Shown piece after piece: positions 8,203 to 20,509 of a stretch of 24,224 nucleotides of DNA. Both the position numbers and the translations under genes were made by a program. Position 1 is the first letter of the stretch, and every line of letters begins with the position of its first letter. The stretch is from a virus, in the IMG/VR virus record IMGVR_UViG_3300010233_000194, positions 4,040 through 28,263 of that record. One strand, written 5' to 3'. Below the pieces are notes generated by a model. It was not told the DNA's origin. It did not search any database and worked only from the letters and a program-made list of their open reading frames with translations.

Positions 8203-8427
8203 TTACTTAATCGCAGCCTTCAGGGGTGCAAGGTCTTGGTCTTGCATGAAGTCTTTTGCAATCATAATTTTTAAGTGCGAAACGTTACGCTCCAAGCAGT
8301 CTGCCCAGTCAGCATCTTCCATGCCTTCGGGCTGTCCTGCGTTGATGAGGTTCACGCTGTCCATACATGCTGAAAAATGCCTAGCGATTTCTTCTGCTGT
8401 AGGTTGCTCAATGTTCATGTTTTCCAT
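8203..8427 (-). CDS. Small conserved phage protein (74 residues), intact copy
   Basis: It opens MENMNIEQPTAEEIARHFSA and continues CMDSVNLINAGQPEGMEDAD, WADCLERNVSHLKIMIAKD and a DLAPLKAAIK end. It is acidic and helical with no recognised catalytic motif. I recall similar short proteins in freshwater phages, of unknown function. Its first 20 bases lie inside the end of the GIY-YIG gene, and its AAAGGAG ribosome-binding site is built from that gene's codons. A truncated 21-codon relative (TAEEVAKHYSAAL) lies on the far side of the nuclease gene at 9106-9171. The start at 8427 is supported by the ribosome-binding site; an internal ATG at codon 4 is an alternative. Confidence 0.75.
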   Translation of the reverse strand: MENMNIEQPTAEEIARHFSACMDSVNLINAGQPEGMEDADWADCLERNVSHLKIMIAKDFMQDQDLAPLKAAIK

Positions 8428-9100
8428 TTACGACTCCTTTCAAGTCTTTTGTGTAACCAAGTTTAATGTATCCAAATTTCTCTGGATACAGTCTCAAGCG
8501 CGTGCGAATTGTTGAGTAATTCACCCCCGTGTACTCCGCCAACTCTTTTGCACATCCGAAAAATTTATTATCAAACATGACGGCATTTGCTGAATGATTA
8601 TTCCTGCCAGATTTTGCTTTTGAAATCTTTTCGCAAAACTCTTGGCTCATTTTTCTACCTTGACCAGCCGCCGATATTTTCGCTCTTATTTCATCTGTAA
8701 ACACCAGCTTTGCCCTTGCTGCTCTCAAATTGGCGCGCTGCTCTTCGGTAAACACATGACCAAAAGTCCAATGTTTTTCACCCATTTGGGCTTCTGCTAT
8801 TTTTCTTTTGGCCTCATCTGTATGCCGCAAACCTGACGGGCCTTCGCCACCATCCGTCTTGTTTGCCAACTTTAAACCCATGCGTTTAAGTTGATCTATG
8901 CGCTCCATCTCTACCAAAAATGATAAATCTTCCTCAATTCCATCGGCAACCAACCGAACAGAATATCCGCCAGCCTTGGCAACAATACTGTTCCAATGCT
9001 TGTTTCTACGATGTTTTGAATGCGCCCGACGAAGACTACCTTTGCCAACATAGAAAATGGCATTGGTGTCAGGTCGGATGTGTTCGTAGACGCAAAACAT
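8408..9100 (-). CDS. GIY-YIG homing endonuclease with NUMOD3 and IENR1-like modules
   Basis: 230 residues. GIY-YIG catalytic domain at about 1-85: CVYEHI (GIY-equivalent), FYVGKG (16-21, YIG-equivalent), with Arg24/Arg25 and Glu64/Glu66 as candidates for the conserved catalytic Arg and Glu. TDGGEGPSGLRHTDE follows (82-96). NUMOD3-type DNA-binding repeats run from about 91 to 166 (HTDEAKRKI, FTEEQRANL, FTDEIRAKI, MSQEFCEKI). An IENR1/NUMOD1-like helix-turn-helix lies at about 170-205 (FGCAKELAEYTGVNYSTIR). It should nick or cleave a specific site and spread by homing. There is no Shine-Dalgarno: the ATG lies 5 bases after the stop of a 21-codon open frame, which suggests coupled translation. 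It is free-standing, not inside an intron that I can see. Confidence 0.9.
   Translation of the reverse strand: MFCVYEHIRPDTNAIFYVGKGSLRRAHSKHRRNKHWNSIVAKAGGYSVRLVADGIEEDLSFLVEMERIDQLKRMGLKLANKTDGGEGPSGLRHTDEAKRKIAEAQMGEKHWTFGHVFTEEQRANLRAARAKLVFTDEIRAKISAAGQGRKMSQEFCEKISKAKSGRNNHSANAVMFDNKFFGCAKELAEYTGVNYSTIRTRLRLYPEKFGYIKLGYTKDLKGVVNGKHEH
8434..8440 (-). promoter_or_regulatory. Ribosome-binding site supplied by the nuclease 3' end
   Basis: AAAGGAG, six bases (TCGTAA) before ATG 8425-8427. It is formed by the Leu-Lys-Gly-Val codons near the end of the GIY-YIG gene. The downstream gene therefore keeps a strong start signal despite the inserted nuclease gene. Confidence 0.7.
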
Positions 9101-11770: not shown

Positions 11771-12439
11771 TTAAACCTTTCTTTCGTTTAGTTTCTTAGC
11801 TGCAATAGTAGCTAATCTTGATGTAATCCGTTTGTTAATCTGTTCCGGGCTTTGTTTTTTGCCTTTGTGAGTGGCAGAAATAATAGCTCTGTGTTCTTCT
11901 GACATTTTTCTTCCCAATGCTTTTTGTCGAATCTTATCTTTTGCTTCTGCGCTTAATTTTTTGCGCTTACCAGCTTCTGATATTTTAGACTTTTGTTCAT
12001 CAGTAAGAACCCTTTCAAGATTTATTTTTTTCAAATAATCTTTTGTTTCTTGCGTATGTTTTTTACCGGTGTTTGCAAGCCTAAGCTTTTCCAGCTGCTC
12101 TTGAGTAAGTTTCCTACCTTTGTTTAAGCGAGAAATTCTTTGCTTAACTTCATCTGTATGACGCAATCCCACACAGCCCTCACCACCATCAGTAACATTT
12201 GCCAAAACAAATCCCATGTCTCTAAAAGATTCAATTAACAATTTTTCGTGGTCAAATGCATCTTTCTCTGTATCCCAATACGCCAATACTTCCACATTGG
12301 GTTTTCCATATTTATTTACAATACGTGCCCAATGTGGGTTTCTTCCTTTTTTACTGTACGCACGATTACCTTGGCCCTTTCCTATGTAGAACAGGCCGCC
12401 TTGATCTGGCTTGTAATGTGCATACGTGTAAAACTGCAT
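11771..12439 (-). CDS. GIY-YIG homing endonuclease with NUMOD3 repeats (second copy)
   Basis: 222 residues. Catalytic domain at about 1-85: FYTYAH (GIY-equivalent), LFYIGKG (16-22, YIG-equivalent), candidate catalytic Arg26 and Glu70 (KLLIE). VTDGGEGCVGLRHTDEVK (82-99) matches the other nuclease in this window at nearly the same place. Four to five NUMOD3-type helices follow (about 92-205: HTDEVKQRI, LTQEQLEKL, HTQETKDYL, LTDEQKSKI, LSAEAKDKI, MSEEHRAII). It lacks the C-terminal IENR1-like module of the copy at 8408-9100, so it probably recognises a different site. It sits between the collagen-like fibre and the S74 fibre, with no Shine-Dalgarno, 12 bases after the upstream stop codon. It is free-standing. 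Confidence 0.9.
   Translation of the reverse strand: MQFYTYAHYKPDQGGLFYIGKGQGNRAYSKKGRNPHWARIVNKYGKPNVEVLAYWDTEKDAFDHEKLLIESFRDMGFVLANVTDGGEGCVGLRHTDEVKQRISRLNKGRKLTQEQLEKLRLANTGKKHTQETKDYLKKINLERVLTDEQKSKISEAGKRKKLSAEAKDKIRQKALGRKMSEEHRAIISATHKGKKQSPEQINKRITSRLATIAAKKLNERKV
11776..11780 (-). promoter_or_regulatory. Ribosome-binding site supplied by the second nuclease 3' end
   Basis: AAAGG, seven bases before ATG 11766-11768. It is formed by the final Arg-Lys-Val codons of the GIY-YIG gene. The TAA stop of the nuclease lies between this site and the fibre-gene ATG. Confidence 0.65.
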
Positions 12440-12451
12440 GATAAAACTATA

Positions 12452-15226
12452 TCAGAATGTGCCGCCAGAAACGGAAGTAACTCCGTATCCCGATAGTGTA
12501 GTAGGTTTGCTTGTTAAATCTGCAAATGAACCTGAAAAAAGTGTAGGCTTATTTGTCAAATCAGCGTAAGAGCCAGAGGTTGCAACAGTCGCCAAGCTGG
12601 AGGTGTTGGCCTTCAGAGCAATTGCTGTGTCAATGGCTGTTTTTGTGTAAGCGTCAGTAATACCAAACCCAGCGATAGTGGTGGGTACGCTAGACAAACC
12701 AGAGAATGGGATGTTGATGTTAGCTGTGCCGTCAAAGGACACACCTGCAATCAGTCGTGCATTCTGTAGGGCTGTAGCTGTTCCTGCGTTACCTGTAACG
12801 GTTGTAGGCGAGGCGTGAACGTGGTCTGAACGAGCCGCTGTGGTAGCTGTACCTGCTGCTGCCGTACCCAATGCTGCACCTGCTGTAGCGCCCAAAGACA
12901 AGAGGCTAGGTCTGTTAGTTAGGTCTGCGTAATCACCAGAGGTTGCCACGGTGGCTAGGCTAGGTTTACCCGTCAGATCAGAGTAAGCGCCCGAGGTGGC
13001 TACGGTAGCCAACGAAGGTTTACCTGTGAGGTCAGAATAAGCACCAGTAGAGGCTACGGTGGCGTAGGTGGGTTTGCCTGTCAGGTCGGAGTAAGCACCG
13101 CTAGTAGCCACGGTAGCGAGACTAGAGGTGTTGGCTTTACCAGATATTGCAGTTGTAACATACGATTCGGTAGCCAAAGCCACTTCTTGTGAGGTGGGGC
13201 CAGCAACCCATTTGCCAGAGGTTTCATCCCACAACAGACGCTGACGAGCCAAGTCGCCACGATCCACGTCCAAACCAGCATAACGCAGTGTTACGCCCGA
13301 TCCAGCTTCACCTTTGTTCACGGTGATGATGTTGTCTTTGACCGTCAGAACTGTTGAGTTAACAGTAGTAGGAGTACCCGCTACGGTGAAGTTGCCCGAA
13401 ACAGTCAGGTTACCAGAGATGGTCTGATCGCCCACAGTAGCCACGGTGGGAGCAGTCAGGGTAACTTGCGTAGCAGAGGTCACGCGAGTCAGAGCGCCTT
13501 GGCCTGAAGATTGAATCAGCACATCACCGTTTTGGCCTGTGGTCTGGATGGTTGTAGAAGCTGCCGAATCCAGCACCAAGTTTCCTGTACCGCTTGTGGC
13601 GATACGCATACCTTGGTTTACATCAGATGTGAAGTTGATGGTGTTGGCAGAAGAACCCAGAACCGCCACTCCATCCACATACAAAGTAGAGGCGTCAAGG
13701 TACATTTCCTTGGCGTAGATGGCTGCAAACTTCTTGGAAGCAGAACCGATGTTGGTCACACCTGCCACGGATGGGAGGATGTCTCCGCTTACGGTCAGGG
13801 CCTTAGTAGCGAAGTCTTGCGCCGCAGAACCACCAGCGGCAGCCACGGATGGCTTGTTGGTCAGGTCAGCATACGAACCCGAGAACAGGCTGGGTTTGCC
13901 AGTCAAGTCGGCGTAGTCACCAGAAGTCGCCACGGTTGCCAAAGTAGGCTTACCCGACAGATCAGAATAAAGACCAGAGGTGGCTACGGTAGACAGAGAA
14001 GGTTTACCAGTCAGGCTTGCGTAAGTACCAGCGGTAGCTACAGAGGCTAAGGTAGAAGGATTAACAGGCGTGTAACCCAGAGCAGACTGGATAGAAGAGG
14101 TGGTTACGGAGGCGTCTGAACCTGCTGGGCCAGTAGCACCTGTCGCACCTGCTGGGCCTTGTGGGCCAGTCAAGCCTGTAGAACCTGTTGGGCCAGCGGG
14201 GCCAGTAGCTCCAGTAGAACCTGTGTCGCCCTTCAAGCCTTGGATACCTTGGATACCCTGTGCGCCAGTAGCACCTGTAGGGCCAGTCGAGCCTGTGTCT
14301 CCCTTGTCGCCCTTTAAGCCTTGTGGGCCTTGAGCACCAGCAGGGCCTGTTGCACCGTCAGCACCAGCCGATCCAGTGTCACCCTTAAGACCTTGGGGGC
14401 CTGTGGCTCCAGTATCACCTTTAACGCCTTGAATACCTTGTGGGCCTTGTGCGCCTGTTGCACCAGTAGCGCCGTTAGGGCCAGCAGGGCCTTGAGCACC
14501 AGTGGCTCCAGCAGCGCCTGTAGCACCTGTATCACCCTTTAACTGAGCAACTACGCCAGCGGGGAGTGTGGTGACGTTAGACAGGTCTTTATTAGCTTTA
14601 TTGGAAACAGTCGTTGTCAATGCGGAAACAGCCGACTCATCAGAAGCCAATTGGTCTGCGATTTCTTTCAGCGTATCCAAGGCAGCGGGAGCAGCGCCCA
14701 CTACAGCAGAGATAGAAGCGTCAATCTGCGGCTGGATGCTTGCACCAGTCAGAGCAGGAGAGCCATTAATGTACACGCCTGAAGTGTTGATTTCAACAGC
14801 CTGACCCACTTGGATCAAACTAGCTTTCAACAGGGGAACGTCCACTGTATCAGGAGCCACCACCATCACTGTACCGCGAACGGCGCTAGTAAATGTTAAG
14901 CGGAAAGAGTTAGCGTCAATGTCTTGTTTACCGACCGACAAGATGTTGCCAGTCTGGTCTTTAACCTGAATCCACAAGTTAGTGCTGTTCAGGTTGTGAG
15001 TCACAACCCAAGTGGAAGAATCCAAACCTTGGCTGTGGATGTATGAGTTTGTCTTAGATGCAAAGGGATACCAAGTCTCCAGATCACCCACCTTGATGTA
15101 GGCAAACAGACACTTGTCCTTGATCATAATAGTGCCAATTTGTGGGTTGGCGGGGAAGCCAGACTCATCCACCGACATAACCAACGCACCGTACAGTGCT
15201 AGGTCGTTATAGATTCTTGATTCCAT
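12452..15226 (-). CDS. Collagen-like tail fibre (924 residues)
   Basis: N-terminal part (1-70) starts [20 protein letters not shown] and is probably the virion-attachment end. An HNL beta-module follows (71-124, [18 protein letters not shown]). Residues 181-203 ([20 protein letters not shown]) are a recurrent fibre helix. A collagen-like region has 47 uninterrupted Gly-X-Y triplets (231-371). Phage-tail repeats of the type [17 protein letters not shown], as in the PTR family, occur at about 390-455, 690-790 and 885-915. In between lie beta motifs such as [20 protein letters not shown]. It ends SVSGGTF. It probably forms a long trimer for adsorption. No chaperone is fused. Its start follows TAA directly, with an AAAGG ribosome-binding site. 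The downstream GIY-YIG gene appears inserted at its 3' end. Confidence 0.85.
14114..14536 (-). repeat. Collagen-like Gly-X-Y repeat region
   Basis: 47 consecutive triplets with Gly in the first position, rich in [12 protein letters not shown] and GST. Three near-identical blocks contain [11 protein letters not shown] or [11 protein letters not shown]. This should form a triple-helical rod within a trimeric fibre. DNA codons vary among the triplets. Confidence 0.88.
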
Positions 15227-15430
15227 TTAAATTCCTTTCGGGCTTATGCCCTTCATGTATGCCGTGCCATGAGCGACTTTTTTCATCACCAAGAGCGTGT
15301 CGTAAGACTGACTAATGAAATCCAATAGTTCTTGTTTTGTAACGGTTCCAACTCTGTACATTTCAAATGTTTCTTGTACATCATCGGCTACGCGGATTAG
15401 CCACTCACGAATTCTCTCAGCTTCGGTCAC
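15227..15430 (-). CDS. Small helical protein of unknown function (67 residues)
   Basis: It starts with GTG: MTEAERIREWLIRVADDVQE, then TFEMYRVGTVTKQELLDFIS and a C-terminal KKVAHGTAYMKGI. It appears entirely helical with no membrane segment. It overlaps the preceding 69-residue gene by 14 bases, and its TAA directly abuts the ATG of the collagen-like fibre. It also provides that gene's AAAGG ribosome-binding site. The tight link to two fibre genes makes a fibre assembly or chaperone role conceivable, but there is no sequence evidence for it. Confidence 0.65.
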   Translation of the reverse strand: MTEAERIREWLIRVADDVQETFEMYRVGTVTKQELLDFISQSYDTLLVMKKVAHGTAYMKGISPKGI

Positions 15431-15626
15431 TCTCTAATATCCTCGTCTCGGCAGTTTCGTAAAACCGCTTTATCCATTCGATATTCTCAGACAACTGATC
15501 CCTATCGTCTTCAGTCATTGGGTCTTCAATCAAATCTGCCAATGCTCTCACTTGATCTTCAAGTGACTCAAATGCATCTTTCACAGTCTTGATCTTTCCA
15601 AAGTCGAAGTTTGACAGAGCTTTCAT
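15417..15626 (-). CDS. Small acidic helical protein of unknown function (69 residues)
   Basis: MKALSNFDFGKIKTVKDAFE, then SLEDQVRALADLIEDPMTED and SENIEWIKRFYETAETRIL. It is acidic and helical, with heptad-like spacing that suggests a short coiled coil. There is no recognised family. It follows the 592-residue fibre gene after a 32-base gap that contains a G6/C6 hairpin. No normal Shine-Dalgarno lies next to the ATG: GTTCTT immediately precedes it. Translation may therefore depend on the hairpin or on termination of the upstream gene. The frame also overlaps the next gene by 14 bases. Confidence 0.65.
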   Translation of the reverse strand: MKALSNFDFGKIKTVKDAFESLEDQVRALADLIEDPMTEDDRDQLSENIEWIKRFYETAETRILESDRS

Positions 15627-15629
15627 AAG

Positions 15630-15654
15630 AACGGGGGGTGATTAGCCCCCCATC
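15630..15654 (-). other. G6/C6 hairpin between fibre gene and small gene
   Basis: GGGGGG (15646-15651 on the minus strand) pairs with CCCCCC (15633-15638) around the 7-base loop CTAATCA, and weaker outer pairs can extend the stem. It begins 7 bases after the TAA of the 592-residue fibre gene and ends 6 bases before the next ATG. Only a weak U-tract (GTTCTT) follows, so partial termination or control of translation is more likely than full termination. Confidence 0.6.
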
Positions 15655-15658
15655 TCAA

Positions 15659-17437
15659 TTACACAGCTTTGGCGCTACGGCAGATCACTTTGACCTTGAG
15701 AGCGGTAGACAAGTACACTTTAACGGTGTTGTTGTCTTGCTCTTCAACGGACACAATGTCGTTGTAGTATTTGCCGTTGGAACGCTCAACTTGCACGCCC
15801 ACGTCCACGAAACCGTTGTTCAGGTTGTGGGTGATGGTGTGCACGGTAGCAGCAGCGGATGCTTGGAAAGTGAACACGGTGGCGTTGTAGTCGCTACGGA
15901 TCGCTGTGTCGGCGGCTGCACGAGCAGAGGCTTCAGCAGTTACAGCGGCTTGACGATCAGAGATTTCTGTGTCAATACGGCCACCCAAAGCAACTTCAGC
16001 AGCTTGAGCACGGCTGATTTCGCTGTTCAGGTCGCTACGCAAAGAAGCGTCAGCGGCAGAACGTGCAGCAGCTTCGGCTGTATCGGCAGCAGCGCGAGCA
16101 GTAGCCTCGGCAGAAACGGCAGCCTGACGGTCAGCAATCTCAGTGTTTAAGTCGGAACGCAGACCTGCTTCAACACCTTCTGCGCGGCTCTTTTCAGTAG
16201 CGATAGCAGTGGCGTTTGTTTGGTCGCCAGACTGACGTGCAGAGATTTCTGTGTTCAGGTCAGTACGCAACGATGCGTCAGCAGCTTGACGTGCAGACTC
16301 TTCAGCGGTAACAGCGGCTGCGCGAGCGGCAGACTCAGCAGTCAGATCAGAACGCAGACCAGCTTCCACGCCTTCAGCACGTGATTTCTCAGTGGCAATG
16401 GCGGTAGCGTTGGCTTGCTCAGCAGCTTGTGCGCGAGCAGTTTCAGCGGTCAAATCGGTGCGGAGGCCAGCCTCAACGCCTTCAGCGCGTGACTTCTCGG
16501 TTGCGATAGCAGCAGCGTTGGTAGCATCGCCAGCAGCACGGGCGGTAGCTTCAGCGGTGTCAGCAGATTGACGTGCAGCGGTTTCGGCAGTCAGGTCTGT
16601 GCGGAGGCCAGCTTCTACGCCAGTAGCACGGGTAACTTCAGCAGCAATGCTGGTAGTCAGGGTCTGCTCAGCGCCTTGGGCACGAGACACTTCGCTAGCC
16701 AAGCCAGCGTTAACTTCGTTGATAGCACCAACCAAGTCAGACTTATAGCTGGTATTCAGGTTGCTCAGATTGCCAATCTTGCCGCTGGACTGTGCTTCCA
16801 AGCTGGTGATACGGCCATCCAAAGCTGTGTCAGCAGAGGCGCGGGTAGAGGCTTCTGCGGAAACGGCAGCTTGGCGATCAGCAACTTCAGTAGTGATGCG
16901 ACCAGACAGAGCAGTTTCAGCGGCTTGAGCACGAGTAACTTCAGCGTCCACATTGGACTGAACTGCACCAATCATGCCTTCCAGCACGTTGATGATGTCT
17001 GGGTTGTTTTCCAGAGCAGCAGCTAATTCTGTGATGGTATCCAAAAATGCAGGAGGGATACCGCCGAGCAAGTCAGCTTTAGTCTGGTCAATTTTAGAAT
17101 TCAGGGCAGCTTCGGCAGCAGTAGCGCGTGTAACTTCGGCAGACAGGTTAGAAGCAATAGTGCCTTCAGCAGACTGGGCACGGGTGGCTTCAGCAGCGAT
17201 AGATGCTTGAACGGTAGCCAACTCGGAAGCGGCAGACTCAGCGTCCTTGATGGTGCGAACAACAACAGCGCCAGAGCTGTTCAAAGAAGAATAACGAACT
17301 ACTTTGTCAGTAGAGTTGAACCATACGCGACCAGCAGCAACGGGGCTGGGGTCAGCAGATAAGATTTCGAGGTTGAGGTTTTCTACGTAGGCATTAGCCG
17401 CAAGGGTAATACCGTGAAATACTGGAAAATTAGCCAT
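15659..17437 (-). CDS. Coiled-coil tail fibre (592 residues)
   Basis: The N-terminal segment (1-65) includes MANFPVFHGITLAANAYVEN and VWFNSTDKVVRYSS, a likely virion-attachment end. A long Ala/Glu/Arg/Thr-rich coiled coil (about 65-520) is built from recurring A-x-x-S-R-A-x-x-A-E units. It has three exact copies of IATEKSRAEGVEAGLR and many DRQAAVSAEA variants, interrupted by LDTITELAAALENNPDIINV (about 132-151) and a short beta-like break (about 228-250). The C-terminal 60 residues (533-592, HTITHNLNNGFVDVGVQVER onward) are an HNL beta-module also found in two neighbours. It is probably a trimeric fibre shaft with a small tip domain. The start is supported by TTGGAG about 7 bases upstream. 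No chaperone is fused. Confidence 0.85.
   Translation of the reverse strand: MANFPVFHGITLAANAYVENLNLEILSADPSPVAAGRVWFNSTDKVVRYSSLNSSGAVVVRTIKDAESAASELATVQASIAAEATRAQSAEGTIASNLSAEVTRATAAEAALNSKIDQTKADLLGGIPPAFLDTITELAAALENNPDIINVLEGMIGAVQSNVDAEVTRAQAAETALSGRITTEVADRQAAVSAEASTRASADTALDGRITSLEAQSSGKIGNLSNLNTSYKSDLVGAINEVNAGLASEVSRAQGAEQTLTTSIAAEVTRATGVEAGLRTDLTAETAARQSADTAEATARAAGDATNAAAIATEKSRAEGVEAGLRTDLTAETARAQAAEQANATAIATEKSRAEGVEAGLRSDLTAESAARAAAVTAEESARQAADASLRTDLNTEISARQSGDQTNATAIATEKSRAEGVEAGLRSDLNTEIADRQAAVSAEATARAAADTAEAAARSAADASLRSDLNSEISRAQAAEVALGGRIDTEISDRQAAVTAEASARAAADTAIRSDYNATVFTFQASAAATVHTITHNLNNGFVDVGVQVERSNGKYYNDIVSVEEQDNNTVKVYLSTALKVKVICRSAKAV
16150..16680 (-). repeat. Coiled-coil heptad-like repeats in the fibre shaft
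   Basis: Three exact 16-residue copies of IATEKSRAEGVEAGLR and one variant (IAAEVTRATGVEAGLR) lie here, with looser AEATARAA-type units between them. The DNA of the copies differs at many third codon positions while the protein is unchanged. Boundaries are approximate. Confidence 0.7.
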
Positions 17438-17508
17438 GAGTCACTCCAAAATTAGTGGATTAGTTTTACAAATTATCGTTACACGACACGACTCACGCAG
17501 ATGAAATC

Positions 17509-17715
17509 TTACTTCAGAAAACGGCGAAGAACAAGTAATTCTTGATCAACCCTCAAAGCATCTGATCCTGCGTGCTTAACTCTCCATTCGGTCTCGCAGA
17601 CCTCACTGGCAAAGAAAAACTTTTCGTCCCTGTATGTCTGCAATACTGCCCCGTGGGCTTTCATATACGCAGCCAAGTGAATATCACGTTTTAAGACAAC
17701 AATGTCATAGGTCAT
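17509..17715 (-). CDS. Small protein of unknown function, possibly DUF5659-like (68 residues)
   Basis: MTYDIVVLKRDIHLAAYMKA, then HGAVLQTYRDEKFFFASEVC and a C-terminal VDQELLVLRRFLK. The pattern of a short strand, LAAYMKAHG helix and FFFAS strand is reminiscent of small proteins grouped as DUF5659, assigned from memory with low weight. It is coupled to the upstream 91-residue gene by ATGA. A 71-base gap with a TTGGAG ribosome-binding site separates it from the coiled-coil fibre. The role is unknown. Confidence 0.68.
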   Translation of the reverse strand: MTYDIVVLKRDIHLAAYMKAHGAVLQTYRDEKFFFASEVCETEWRVKHAGSDALRVDQELLVLRRFLK

Positions 17716-17987
17716 AAGGAGAACACCACGTTTACCGAACCGCTCATTGGCTCAGTCATATAAACAACAAATTGGTTGGCGCTAATAACTTTTGTTCCAG
17801 CAAAAAATTGTTGATTGTTGGAATCAAATAAACTAGCAACAAAGTTATACGTCCCCAGGTTGTGCGTCACAGTCCAAGTTAACTCAGGGGTGTTAAACGT
17901 GTAAACACGACCAACTGAAGTTAAACCTGCTGATGTGGCTCCCGTCCCGTAAACTTTGCCGTATGGACGTGCAAAGTATGTTGCCAT
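17712..17987 (-). CDS. Stand-alone HNL beta-module protein (91 residues)
   Basis: The N-terminal 35 residues contain MATYFARPYGKVYGTGATSA. The rest (36-91) is an HNL beta-module: WTVTHNLGTYNFVASLFDSN, then GTKVISANQFVVYMTEPMSG and SVNVVFSL. The same module forms the C-terminus of the 592-residue fibre and residues 71-124 of the 924-residue fibre. This suggests a small virion protein that decorates or caps a fibre, or a source of the module for its neighbours. It starts directly after the TAA of the preceding gene. No catalytic motif is present. Confidence 0.75.
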   Translation of the reverse strand: MATYFARPYGKVYGTGATSAGLTSVGRVYTFNTPELTWTVTHNLGTYNFVASLFDSNNQQFFAGTKVISANQFVVYMTEPMSGSVNVVFSL

Positions 17988-18308
17988 TTAGATTCCCGCC
18001 TGTAACACCTTAAGAATAACTGAGCCTGATGTATATTCCGTGACACGAACACGCACTCCAGAGACTGGGTACGCATAATATCCATCAGCATTAGCTGTTT
18101 GATCTACAATAAATGGAAACCAAACAATATCAGCAGGATTGTGGGCCGTCCACAAATCATGATAAGTATGTTCAACGGTGTATTTTAAAGTAGAGCCTGG
18201 GCTTAGCATTACAGCAACTGACACGTTTACAGGCGTTAAGTTAATATCCACACCCACCACGTCAGTTGTTCCAAGACCCGTAACCTCGGTCTGAACTTGT
18301 CTCGACAT
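17988..18308 (-). CDS. Small beta-rich virion protein (106 residues)
   Basis: MSRQVQTEVTGLGTTDVVGV, then VSVAVMLSPGSTLKYTVEHT (about 29-48), YHDLWTAHNPADIVWFP, and a C-terminal YPVSGVRVRVTEYTSGSVIL with KVLQAGI. The series of V-x-V strands with the YTVEHTxxD and GSVxLxVLQAG patterns resembles a short beta-sandwich virion protein that I recall in many tailed phages, perhaps a decoration or tail-tip component. The ATG overlaps the TAA of the 733-residue fibre gene, and the ribosome-binding site GGAGGG is inside that gene's SGGTF codons, so translation is coupled. Confidence 0.75.
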   Translation of the reverse strand: MSRQVQTEVTGLGTTDVVGVDINLTPVNVSVAVMLSPGSTLKYTVEHTYHDLWTAHNPADIVWFPFIVDQTANADGYYAYPVSGVRVRVTEYTSGSVILKVLQAGI

Positions 18309-18322
18309 TAGAACGTCCCTCC
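18308..18322 (-). promoter_or_regulatory. Shine-Dalgarno and TAATG coupling site inside fibre-gene C-terminus
   Basis: GGAGGG (18317-18322), encoded by the Gly-Gly of the terminal SGGTF, lies 8 bases before ATG 18306-18308. The TAA stop shares its last base with that ATG. Of 32 bases aligned here, 25 match the junction at 4460, by hand count. Confidence 0.72.
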
Positions 18323-20509
18323 AGAAATGCCGCCAGTAGCGGTCACAGTTGTAAAGCTACCTGCGGCTGCGGTAGTGCCTCCAATGACGGTTCCATTAAC
18401 CGTTCCACCAGTAATCGTCACGCTGTTTGCGTTTTGCGTGGACATTGTGCCAAGACCAGAAATGTCTGTATTAGGAATTGTGGCAGAAGCCGTTAGCGCA
18501 GATGTTCCTGAACCCTTGACGTATCCCGTAAGGGTGGCTGCACCAGTTCCGCCATTGGCTACAGGCAAAGTTCCTGATGTTATTTGAGATGCCGCAATAG
18601 CAATTGCTACGTTAGATGCGCTTGTAATCTGACCTTGAGCATTAACAATAACTTGGGGTACGGAGCTTGCACTGCCGTAAGTATTTGCGGTAACGCCTGT
18701 GTTGCCAATGTTAAATGTGTAAGATGGGGACTCTGTTAAGCCAGTGCCAGCAGAGTAGGTAATTGGAGCACCAAATTGCTGGAACACCAAAGATGTAATT
18801 CCAACGGTAATAGGAAGGGGTGTCTGTTGAACCCAAGATGTATTGGTGTTGGCAGTTCCCACTGTAATGAGGAAGAAGTCACCAGCATCAATTTGATTGA
18901 TGCCAGTTCCTGCGGTATTGTAATCAGTTGCCCTTGTTAAAATATAAGGGGCTCCAGCCGTTCCTACTTGCGTAACGGTGTACACACCATTGTTAGCGCC
19001 AGCAGCTTCATTCTTGACCAAAATGCGGTTGCCAGCCACAGTTAACGTACCATCCACGCTCAGAGCGCCATTAGCATTAGCGGTTAAGGTTGCCCCAACA
19101 CCAAATGCGCCGTTGTTGTAAGTGTTTGCGGGAAGCGCTGTTGTAGTAGCAAGGCGACAGGCTTGATGGAAGTTAAGGCCAGCAGAAATGCCATCAACAT
19201 AAGTTTTGTTAACAATGTCGTTGCCACTAGATGGTGTTGTGGTGATTGTTCCTGTAGTGAGCGCCACAGAGCCTAACGTGCCTGATGTAGCGTTAACTGT
19301 TGTAAATGTACTAGCGGCGGGAGTGATTGCGCCTATTGTGGTTCCGTTGATTGCGCCACCAGAAATAGCTACAAAGCTTGCGCTCTGTGTAGACATTGTT
19401 CCCAAACCCGTAATGTCGGTGTTGGGTATGGTTGCGGAGGCGGTTAGGGCAGAGGTTCCTGTACCCTTAACGTAACCAGTCAGAGTTGCCGCGCCAGTGC
19501 CGCCAGACGCAACCGCAATCGGAGACGACAAGCCGCTGATGGTTCCGCCTGTAATGGCTACGTTATTGGCGTTTTGGGTAGACATGGTTCCCAAGCCAGT
19601 AATGTCTGTGCTTGGAATGGTTGCAACACCAGTAAAGGCGGACATTCCATTGCCTTTTAAATAACCGCTTAAAGTGTTAGCGCCAGTACCGCCGTTAGCA
19701 ACCACTAACGTACCGCCGAGTGATATAGCGCCGTTTGTGGGAAGAACTGGGGTTAATCCTGTAGTTCCGCCATCAAATGTGGTTACACCGTTACCCTGAG
19801 CAAAAGCAAGCCAGCTCCCCGCGGTATAACCCTCAAACACCCCAGTTGTAGTGTTAAAACGAATTTGACCAGTAACTCCAGCAGGTTGCTGTGCAATTGT
19901 TCCTTTGGGGATGGTCATGCCGCCTGTGCCAGGTATGGTTGGATCGCTGACTATAGATATAGTTGGACTACCAGAACCACCATCTCCATTGACCACGTTT
20001 ATTTGGTTAGCGGTTCCGTAGATTTGCCGACCAGCAATCGTAGATCCACCCACAATCGCAAGCATTCCTGTGCCAGATGCGCCAGCAATCGCCGCGGCAA
20101 CACCCGTGAGCTGGAAAGTGGGATTACCTGATACCCCATCGCCATTTGTAACGCTTAAGCCCAAACCAGAGGTAGAAAGCGTCCTTGCGGCAACGGTAGT
20201 TCCGCCAGTCTTGGCAATCATGCCTGTAGAGGCGGTTTCTAGGCTTCCAGAGGCTCCGTTTAGGTTCAGGCGTAGGTATGACTGTGAACCACCATCTGTG
20301 ATGGATAAACCTGTATTAGTGGACAAATAACGACTATTAGGAAGGCTTGGTTCTTGGTTCTTAGTAAGAAAGGTCTGAGTCTGAGCCGGAGATGCGGCAA
20401 TAGCACCAGTAGTTGTTTGTACGGTAACGCCATTCTGAACAACAGGAACAAGCTCAGTGCCTGTAATAGCACCAGCAGCAGGAAGTTGAGATATTTGTAC
20501 GTTTGCCAT
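18308..20509 (-). CDS. Tail fibre protein with 57-residue repeats (733 residues)
   Basis: It starts MANVQISQLPAAGAITGTEL, a fibre N-terminus I recall from many phages. It has Gly/Thr/Ser-rich beta strands throughout. Three repeats of about 57 residues (270-326, 333-389, 650-706) have the pattern VAxGGTGAxTLTGYVKGxGT followed by IPNTDITGLGTMSTQ. Between copies two and three, residues about 431-590 form a distinct domain: NDIVNKTYVDGISAGLNFHQ, then VAGNRILVKNEAAGANNGVY and TRATDY. This domain is common in phage fibre and baseplate-associated proteins. It ends TTAAAGSFTTVTATGGISGG plus TF. There is no S74 chaperone. Receptor binding is the likely role. The gene is 2 bases after the TAA of the zinc-ribbon gene and has no strong Shine-Dalgarno, so coupling is likely. 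Confidence 0.83.
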   Translation of the reverse strand: MANVQISQLPAAGAITGTELVPVVQNGVTVQTTTGAIAASPAQTQTFLTKNQEPSLPNSRYLSTNTGLSITDGGSQSYLRLNLNGASGSLETASTGMIAKTGGTTVAARTLSTSGLGLSVTNGDGVSGNPTFQLTGVAAAIAGASGTGMLAIVGGSTIAGRQIYGTANQINVVNGDGGSGSPTISIVSDPTIPGTGGMTIPKGTIAQQPAGVTGQIRFNTTTGVFEGYTAGSWLAFAQGNGVTTFDGGTTGLTPVLPTNGAISLGGTLVVANGGTGANTLSGYLKGNGMSAFTGVATIPSTDITGLGTMSTQNANNVAITGGTISGLSSPIAVASGGTGAATLTGYVKGTGTSALTASATIPNTDITGLGTMSTQSASFVAISGGAINGTTIGAITPAASTFTTVNATSGTLGSVALTTGTITTTPSSGNDIVNKTYVDGISAGLNFHQACRLATTTALPANTYNNGAFGVGATLTANANGALSVDGTLTVAGNRILVKNEAAGANNGVYTVTQVGTAGAPYILTRATDYNTAGTGINQIDAGDFFLITVGTANTNTSWVQQTPLPITVGITSLVFQQFGAPITYSAGTGLTESPSYTFNIGNTGVTANTYGSASSVPQVIVNAQGQITSASNVAIAIAASQITSGTLPVANGGTGAATLTGYVKGSGTSALTASATIPNTDISGLGTMSTQNANSVTITGGTVNGTVIGGTTAAAGSFTTVTATGGISGGTF
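18392..19702 (-). repeat. Three dispersed 57-residue repeats in the fibre gene
   Basis: Copies lie at 19532-19702, 19343-19513 and 18392-18562. The last two encode almost the same protein over about 40 residues, but by hand count about 28 of roughly 118 aligned bases differ, nearly all at third codon positions. Confidence 0.75.

What the first reader, a model, noticed from the sequence alone, without database searches (positions are those of the whole stretch)
12452..17987. One HNL beta-module reused in three neighbouring genes
A 50-60 residue module with (W/H)xVTHNL, a V-x-V strand pair and a closing G-x-V-x-V-V strand appears as residues 71-124 of the 924-residue fibre, as the C-terminal 60 residues of the 592-residue fibre and as most of a stand-alone 91-residue protein. 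Its position differs in each (near the N-terminus, C-terminal, alone). This points to domain shuffling inside the fibre block and to a shared binding role, perhaps fibre-fibre or fibre-tail contact.
Basis: partly seen in the sequence, partly recalled or inferred. Interest (0 to 1): 0.5.

Follow-up and report, generated by a model that had tools for sequence, protein, structure and literature searches.

The report
Shared domain in three phage fibres
Three neighbouring phage genes carry old, related copies of one small beta-sheet domain that recurs in phage particle proteins but has no name in the main domain libraries; its fixed places suggest a structural or docking role.

Summary
One ~60-residue module lies at residues 62-122 of the 924-aa fibre, 522-586 of the 592-aa fibre and 28-87 of the 91-aa protein. 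A profile built without 592-type sequences still finds the 592 copy (i-E 9e-10; best reversed decoy 0.061). AlphaFold2 gives confident all-beta models for the 91 and 592 copies.

"Shuffling inside the block" is not supported as a recent process. In 26 of 26 contigs where I could see all three genes, gene order and module position agree. Stand-alone and 592-type copies form separate, fully supported clades. 592-type and 924-type copies are recognisable, as neighbours, in jumbo phages PaBG and AD1. PaBG's 592-type protein, gp257, was identified in virions (PMC7412058).

The module is widespread: 239 matches, no decoys at 1e-3. No Pfam or NCBIfam family covers it; PHROGs holds it inside mostly unnamed families, and inside virion structural and head decoration families.

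Best reading: a beta-domain that caps or docks fibre proteins. Direct fibre-fibre contact through it is plausible but untested.

The parts
17712..17987 (-). 91-aa stand-alone HNL protein
   Evidence: ORF; AF2 mean pLDDT 90, about 98 over residues 31-90
17727..17906 (-). HNL module, stand-alone copy (residues 28-87)
   Evidence: profile boundaries
17509..17715 (-). 68-aa ORF between the 91-aa and 592-aa genes, unknown
   Evidence: ORF; no Pfam or PHROG match at E <= 1; no tblastn match in phage records at 0.1
15659..17437 (-). 592-aa fibre: N-terminus, helical shaft, C-terminal HNL module
   Evidence: ORF; regional conservation
15893..17212 (-). 592-aa shaft (residues 76-515): Ala-rich, 3 Pro, hydrophobic period 3.61, coiled-coil-like
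   Evidence: power 6.07 against 1.43 for the 99.8th percentile of 500 shuffles
15680..15874 (-). HNL module, C-terminal copy (residues 522-586)
   Evidence: AF2 mean pLDDT 92.5 from a 592-type-only alignment
12452..15226 (-). 924-aa collagen-containing fibre with HNL module near its N-terminus
   Evidence: ORF; Pfam Collagen 6.3e-21
15044..15226 (-). N-terminal 61 residues of the 924-aa fibre; with the module they match the front part of ~200-aa proteins of PaBG and AD1
   Evidence: tblastn of residues 1-125: 54 of 54 matching phage records cover at least 80% of the query; PaBG_258 and AD1_094
14861..15043 (-). HNL module, N-terminal copy (residues 62-122)
   Evidence: phrog_21918 E 1.3e-17
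14114..14542 (-). collagen-like Gly-X-Y region of the 924-aa fibre (about residues 229-371)
   Evidence: Pfam Collagen; range from NCBIfam and PDB collagen matches

Best explanation
The three segments are ancient paralogues of one small (~60 aa) all-beta domain, here called HNL, that recurs in virion proteins of tailed phages. They belong to a conserved set of neighbouring genes: a short HNL protein, a helical-shaft protein ending in HNL, and a protein whose N-terminal base carries HNL in front of an exchangeable fibre.

Shown: homology of the three, confident all-beta models for two of them, fixed gene order and module position in relatives, position-specific descent, no Pfam or NCBIfam family. 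Shown by a published mass-spectrometry table: one homologue (PaBG gp257, 592-type) is in the virion.

Inferred: the fold is a beta-sandwich, and HNL works as a trimeric structural domain. In the 592-aa protein it caps the distal end of the shaft; in the 924-aa fibre it is part of the base through which an exchangeable collagen fibre is attached; the 91-aa protein is the same domain alone, acting as a small adaptor or plug. It is more likely a docking or assembly surface than the variable host-recognition tip.
For: Homology beyond chance. AF2 models: 91 aa, mean pLDDT 90 from an 87-row alignment; 592 C-terminus, 92.5 from 592-type rows only. In the 50 listed rows of each structural second look, both models share phage tail, fibre or spike entries: Pam1 tailspike (Z 5.6 and 5.5), R2 pyocin fibre (4.5 and 5.2), Carin-1 8ck1_B (5.3 and 5.4), LME-1 9efk_AE (5.7 and 5.2), Sf6 tailspike (4.6 and 4.1). 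The viral library BFVD gives 52 matches at E <= 0.001 for the 91-aa model. Position: 186 of 239 modules end within 25 residues of the ORF end; 111 of 133 after reduction to 72% identity. Order and place fixed in 26 of 26 contigs; clades by position. 592-type: N-terminus 0.78-0.92, module 0.65-0.90, shaft 0.29-0.60 identical to the window in 10 of 19 relatives (L040, L029, L044, L063, L064, L065, L068, L070, L104, L110; several of these are close to each other). PaBG_257 and AD1_095 score best with the 592-type profile, their neighbours PaBG_258 and AD1_094 with the 924-type profile. PaBG gp257: 57,162.97 Da in the published virion table, 57,162.2 Da computed for PaBG_00257. Collagen in the 924-aa fibre implies a trimer (general knowledge).
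Against: No oligomer or complex was modelled. Structural similarities are weak (best Z 6.6; Foldseek E in the PDB no better than 0.08), in the range that unrelated small beta-sandwiches reach; immunoglobulin-like and adhesin domains fill many rows too. Collagen is not enriched in module ORFs (6 of 96 against 27 of 969 ORFs of 150 aa or more). In L016 the 91-like gene is a distant one beside near-identical neighbours. Conservation is two-sided for the 924-type base: in L007, L009, L013 and L016 the base is 0.91-1.0 identical and the last 150 residues 0.22-0.33, but in L020, L021 and L024 the base is 0.68-0.86 and the tip 0.95. Of the other nine 592-type relatives, five full-length close ones are similar throughout, L013 is cut, L061 is mixed, and L028 and L030 show little difference between module and shaft. 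Some homologues are annotated head decoration, not tail fibre, so which virion part carries them is open.
Confidence: 0.6

Rival explanations
1. HNL is a receptor- or glycan-binding knob (lectin-like tip) carried by several fibres of the same particle.
For: It is C-terminal in most homologues found (186 of 239). Both models resemble tailspike ends and, weakly, H-type lectins (Helix agglutinins 4q56/2ce6/2ccv Z 4.1-4.5; SLL-2 Z 4.7 for the 91-aa model).
Against: In 10 of 19 592-type relatives the module is clearly better conserved than the shaft, the reverse of a host-range tip. In the 924-aa fibre it is near the N-terminus, normally the virion side (general knowledge). The invariant His (87 of 87 rows, a set selected by the profile) sits just after a predicted strand, with no known ligand.
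Confidence: 0.15
2. HNL is a capsid-decoration domain: the cassette encodes head fibres, and the module anchors them or fills the lattice.
For: PDB 9nx3_A, 'Capsid decoration protein', carries the module at 168-234 (E 6.3e-5; 0.0016 with the larger profile), and its residues 33-132 match a phrog_2647-like protein (1.3e-9). Second genes of the pair are annotated head decoration in phages E3 and Phrappuccino and some score with phrog_2647 (7.7e-80 for L163). The 733-aa fibre upstream in the window matches the body of phrog_2647 (8.5e-9).
Against: Other homologues are annotated tail fiber protein or structural tail protein. PaBG gp257 is listed as putative tail component. In relative G006 the cassette lies directly before the 807-aa relative of the window's 859-aa fibre, with the major head protein at the far end of the contig. 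Names in PHROGs are transferred, not tested.
Confidence: 0.2
3. Convergence: short W-x-V-x-H-N-L strands look alike, and the three are unrelated beta-hairpins.
For: 592 against 91 alone is not significant (498 of 5000 shuffles), and hhalign gives only 41% in one test.
Against: Profile matches along the module without decoys, and both predicted copies are all-beta with shared neighbours.
Confidence: 0.03

Closest known systems
phrog_21918 (PHROGs, unknown function, 200 positions)
   Same: Finds all three window copies; 924-aa residues 22-123 align to positions 23-127, so N-terminus plus module. 73 of 87 diverse modules match it at 1e-3.
   Different: Function unnamed. The ~200-aa proteins PaBG_258 and AD1_094, which score best with the 924-type profile, carry two modules and leave no room for a collagen fibre.
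phrog_16122 / Pseudomonas phage PaBG gp257 (virion structural protein)
   Same: Long protein ending in a module that scores best with the 592-type profile; the next gene is 924-type. Identified in purified virions (PMC7412058 Table 1, seen as a passage).
   Different: Body unlike the 592-aa shaft: tblastn with the whole 592-aa protein finds 4 phage records, PaBG and AD1 not among them.
phrog_2647 head decoration proteins and PDB 9nx3
   Same: End in a divergent HNL-like domain and, in the named phages examined, follow a short HNL gene.
   Different: Only 11 of 87 modules match phrog_2647 at 1e-3, and the 91-aa protein is not one of them. The 9nx3 paper was not found.
PfC / PCoil trimerisation domains of E. 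coli prophage collagen-like proteins (PMC3368898)
   Same: Small domains next to phage collagen or coiled coil; PfC and the PfN-PCoil fragment were shown to be trimers by light scattering (passages).
   Different: No sequence link was tested. PfC is C-terminal to collagen; in the 924-aa fibre HNL is on the N-terminal side.
C-terminal beta-domains of phage tailspikes and pyocin fibres (Pam1, Sf6, R2 pyocin)
   Same: Shared structural neighbours of both models, small beta-domains at chain ends.
   Different: Z 4.1-5.6 and 7-16% identity in those rows; no proof of common origin.

Membership tests
phrog_21918 | Profile match over the module | tested here: met
   924: 1.3e-14; 91: 2.1e-4; 592: 0.029 (weak) in hmmscan; 1.3e-17, 9.3e-6, 9.7e-5 in the single-genome search
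Pfam bacterial Ig domain Big_8 (PF17961) | Score above the curated cut-off | tested here: not met
   924-aa protein 14.7 bits against cut-off 22.9. Among family modules 4 of 22 match at E <= 1, best 2e-4, and 1 of 87 at E <= 0.01; their bits were not listed
Any Pfam or NCBIfam domain | A family matched by many members | tested here: not met
   At E <= 0.01 no Pfam family matches more than 2 of 87 members and no NCBIfam family more than 1
phrog_2647 head decoration | C-terminal part of the profile matches the window modules | tested here: inconclusive
   11 of 87 family modules match at 1e-3; not among the families listed for the 592- and 91-aa proteins, while the list for the 924-aa protein is cut at 25 of 55; 9nx3 carries the module
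Phage tailspike/fibre C-terminal beta-domain | Same fold | tested here: inconclusive
   Z up to 6.1 (TSP4 of CBA120) and 5.6 (Pam1) for the 91-aa model; 5.5 (Pam1) and 5.2 (R2 pyocin) for the 592 model
H-type lectin fold | Same fold and GalNAc site | tested here: inconclusive
   Z 4.1-4.5 to Helix agglutinins; the site was not tested
Trimerisation domain (PfC-like) | Trimer in solution | not testable with these tools
   Only single-chain prediction was available
Trimerisation domain (PfC-like) | Lies beside collagen as a rule | tested here: not met
   9 of 133 non-redundant modules lie in an ORF with five or more Gly-X-Y in a row; 4 have it within 60 residues upstream, 0 within 120 downstream

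The most novel reading that the evidence does not exclude
The paralogues are the two halves of a fibre joint: the HNL at the distal end of the 592-aa shaft docks on the HNL in the base of the 924-aa fibre, a pseudo-symmetric joint between two trimers, with the 91-aa protein as an interchangeable ring or plug. The 592-type and 924-type modules in neighbouring genes of the window's relatives and of jumbo phages would then be a conserved coupler that lets phages swap distal fibres without rebuilding the stalk.
Probability: 0.25. Interest if true: 0.65.

Novelty: new member of a known kind. Interest (0 to 1): 0.42.

Why it matters
A beta-domain that recurs in phage virion proteins has no Pfam or NCBIfam entry, and most of its places in named phage records are annotated only as hypothetical protein in the listings I saw. 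A model of it would annotate short genes beside fibre and head-decoration genes. If the joint reading is right it would explain how a stalk and an exchangeable fibre are coupled.

Tried and rejected
Collagen-cap idea: rejected as a rule, since collagen is not clearly enriched (6 of 96 module ORFs of 150 aa or more against 27 of 969 others). Similarity of the N-terminal 60-70 residues of 924 and 592: no support (z 0.2, 769 of 2000 shuffles). A literature name for the module: full-text searches for 'HNLG' with 'phage' (27 papers, the 15 listed unrelated) and 'THNLG' (0 papers) gave nothing. The 9nx3 paper: not found; passages of the Douge paper found by term do not name it. A search for decoration and collagen-like papers found none. 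tblastn of the 592 module alone finds no phage record at 0.1. Bacterial genomes: one weak partial locus, so that scan says little about prophages. Five named phages whose portal resembles that of relative G006 have no module (0 of 5), so they could not serve as named close relatives carrying it. The Rhodococcus E3 literature search was uninformative. Absences from the VIA-align lists are not used as evidence.
Full report
What is there. The finding spans three minus-strand genes of a 29,084-base virus contig: a 91-aa protein (17712-17987), a 592-aa fibre (15659-17437) and a 924-aa fibre (12452-15226). Each holds one copy of a ~60-residue module; a family profile finds these three places and no other in the contig, even at E <= 10. 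The copies lie at residues 28-87, 522-586 and 62-122.

Is it real. The 924 and 91 copies are plainly related (z 12.6), the 924 and 592 copies clearly (z 6.0), the 592 and 91 copies not on their own (z 1.5; 498 of 5000 shuffles as high). The weak edge closes through the wider family. I collected relatives from viral contigs and iterated a profile over 8,896 distinct ORFs and the same number of reversed decoys: 239 matches, no decoy at 1e-3. A profile built only from non-592 sequences finds the window's 592 copy at i-E 9e-10, with the best decoy at 0.061. The reverse test is weak: a 592-only profile finds 4 of 191 other ORFs at 1e-3, and hhalign of 592-type against 91-type gave 80% in one test and 41% in another.

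Fold. AlphaFold2 gives a confident all-beta model of the module in the 91-aa protein (mean pLDDT 90, about 98 over residues 31-90; four listed strands, two of them long) and, from an alignment of 592-type sequences only, in the 592 C-terminus (mean 92.5; seven listed strands after a short helix). The second rests on no sequence of the other types. Both models find some of the same phage tail, fibre or spike entries among their 50 listed PDB neighbours, but no Z is above 6.6, so I claim a similar general fold, not a shared origin with those proteins. The models could not be superposed directly, and the 924 copy was not predicted. A viral-structure search with the 91-aa model gave 52 matches at E <= 0.001, PaBG proteins among them.

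Not recently shuffled. In 26 contigs (the window and 25 others, those picked because all three genes could be seen) the order is always 91-like, 592-like, 924-like. The module sits near the end of the short protein, 6-12 residues from the end of the long one, and starts 62-107 residues into the third ORF. Two of the 26 carry a further module gene between the second and third. A tree of the 80 modules puts all 26 short copies and all 26 592-type copies in separate clades, both 100/100; the 924-type copies are not resolved as one clade (41% of bootstrap trees), the alignment has few columns, and the root is only a midpoint. Position-specific profiles still sort neighbouring genes of jumbo phages: PaBG_257 scores 29.9 bits with the 592-type profile against 18.3 or less, PaBG_258 51.6 with the 924-type against 19.4 or less; AD1_095 18.4 with the 592-type against 11.3 or less, AD1_094 59.4 with the 924-type against 36.9 or less. 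So the paralogues are old.

How the proteins vary. In four close relatives (L007, L009, L013, L016) the first 124 residues of the 924-type protein are 91-100% identical to the window's, while the last 150 are 22-33% identical. In L020, L021 and L024 it is the reverse: base 68-86%, tip 95%. Base and tip therefore behave as separate exchange units, with the module in the base. In the 592-type protein the shaft varies (29-60%) while the N-terminus (78-92%) and the module (65-90%) are kept in 10 of 19 relatives compared; five full-length close relatives are alike throughout, L013 is cut, L061 is mixed, and L028 and L030 show little difference. The shaft has a strong 3.61-residue hydrophobic period and is Ala-rich with 3 prolines in 440 residues, as expected of a coiled coil. 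The 924-aa fibre has a collagen-like region. Both point to trimers. A module more conserved than its shaft fits an assembly or docking surface better than a variable receptor-binding tip. This is inference.

The wider family. 186 of the 239 modules end within 25 residues of the end of their ORF. A recurrent arrangement is a short protein ending in HNL followed, within 326 bases, by a longer protein ending in HNL: 47 distinct pairs among 117 consecutive module-gene pairs (the size limits of the filter were mine, and some pairs are near-copies). Four named phages examined for this, chosen because they carry the module, all have two adjacent module genes: Javan117, E3, R5C and Phrappuccino; so does RcMrWorf. 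The second member is annotated head decoration (E3, Phrappuccino), tail fiber protein (Javan117), tail repeat like protein (R5C) or hypothetical (RcMrWorf). Other loci hold up to seven module genes (L158). 0 of 5 named phages whose portal resembles that of relative G006 have any module, so within that wider group the cassette looks optional.

Experimental anchors. PaBG gp257, the 592-type homologue, is listed with 57,162.97 Da as a 'putative tail component' among 14 proteins identified from purified virions (PMC7412058, Table 1, read as a passage). I compute 57,162.2 Da for PaBG_00257, which ends in the module. The sequence of PDB 9nx3, a 'capsid decoration protein', contains the module; I did not find its paper.

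What is known. Pfam and NCBIfam have no family for the module: at E <= 0.01 no family matches more than 2 of 87 members. PHROGs has it inside several families, mostly of unknown function; phrog_21918 matches 73 of 87. A described functional analogue, read in passages, is the pair of PfC and PCoil trimerisation domains of prophage collagen-like proteins (PMC3368898). Those sit beside collagen; HNL as a family does not.

Verdict. The shuffling idea is replaced by old, frozen paralogy. The contact idea is kept as an untested but sharpened hypothesis: the distal HNL of the 592-aa shaft against the basal HNL of the 924-aa fibre. Head or tail location is open.

Noticed in passing
window 8408-9100 and 11771-12439, minus strand: Two related genes (40% identity over 176 aa) with Pfam NUMOD3 motifs flank the 859-aa S74 fibre gene. 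They look like GIY-YIG-type homing endonucleases; GIY-YIG is my reading, not a Pfam hit.
   Followed up: partly
window 18308-20509, minus strand: The 733-aa fibre just upstream of the cassette matches the body of phrog_2647 'head decoration' (8.5e-9) and phrog_30390 (7.7e-18) but has no HNL module.
   Followed up: partly
window 14615-14746 (924 aa) and 16982-17113 (592 aa): A second possible shared segment (around [15 protein letters not shown] / PPAFLDTITELAAAL), after the module in 924 and before it in 592; z 4.0, 3 of 2000 shuffles. Hint of an old rearrangement.
   Followed up: partly
L016 (contig G006): The module of the 91-like gene is only 32% identical to the window's while those of its 592-like and 924-like neighbours are 93% and 98% identical: looks like a swap of one cassette gene.
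   Followed up: no
L158, L152, L150, L157, L049, L050: Four to seven module genes in one locus, including a ~200-aa protein with two modules in tandem, as in PaBG (L049) and AD1 (L050).
   Followed up: partly
phrog_24148 (annotated HNH endonuclease), positions ~192-264: 37 of 87 HNL modules match this family, at its C-terminal part in the one case seen: either a fusion or a wrongly named family.
   Followed up: no
L047 (phage RcMrWorf) 8851-10246: The HNL pair gp10-gp11 lies between DNA polymerase and ribonucleotide reductase genes, with no annotated tail gene in the stretch shown.
   Followed up: no
window 12921-13125: 54-base tandem repeat (3.8 copies) encoding an ~18-residue repeat near the C-terminus of the 924-aa fibre.
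   Followed up: no
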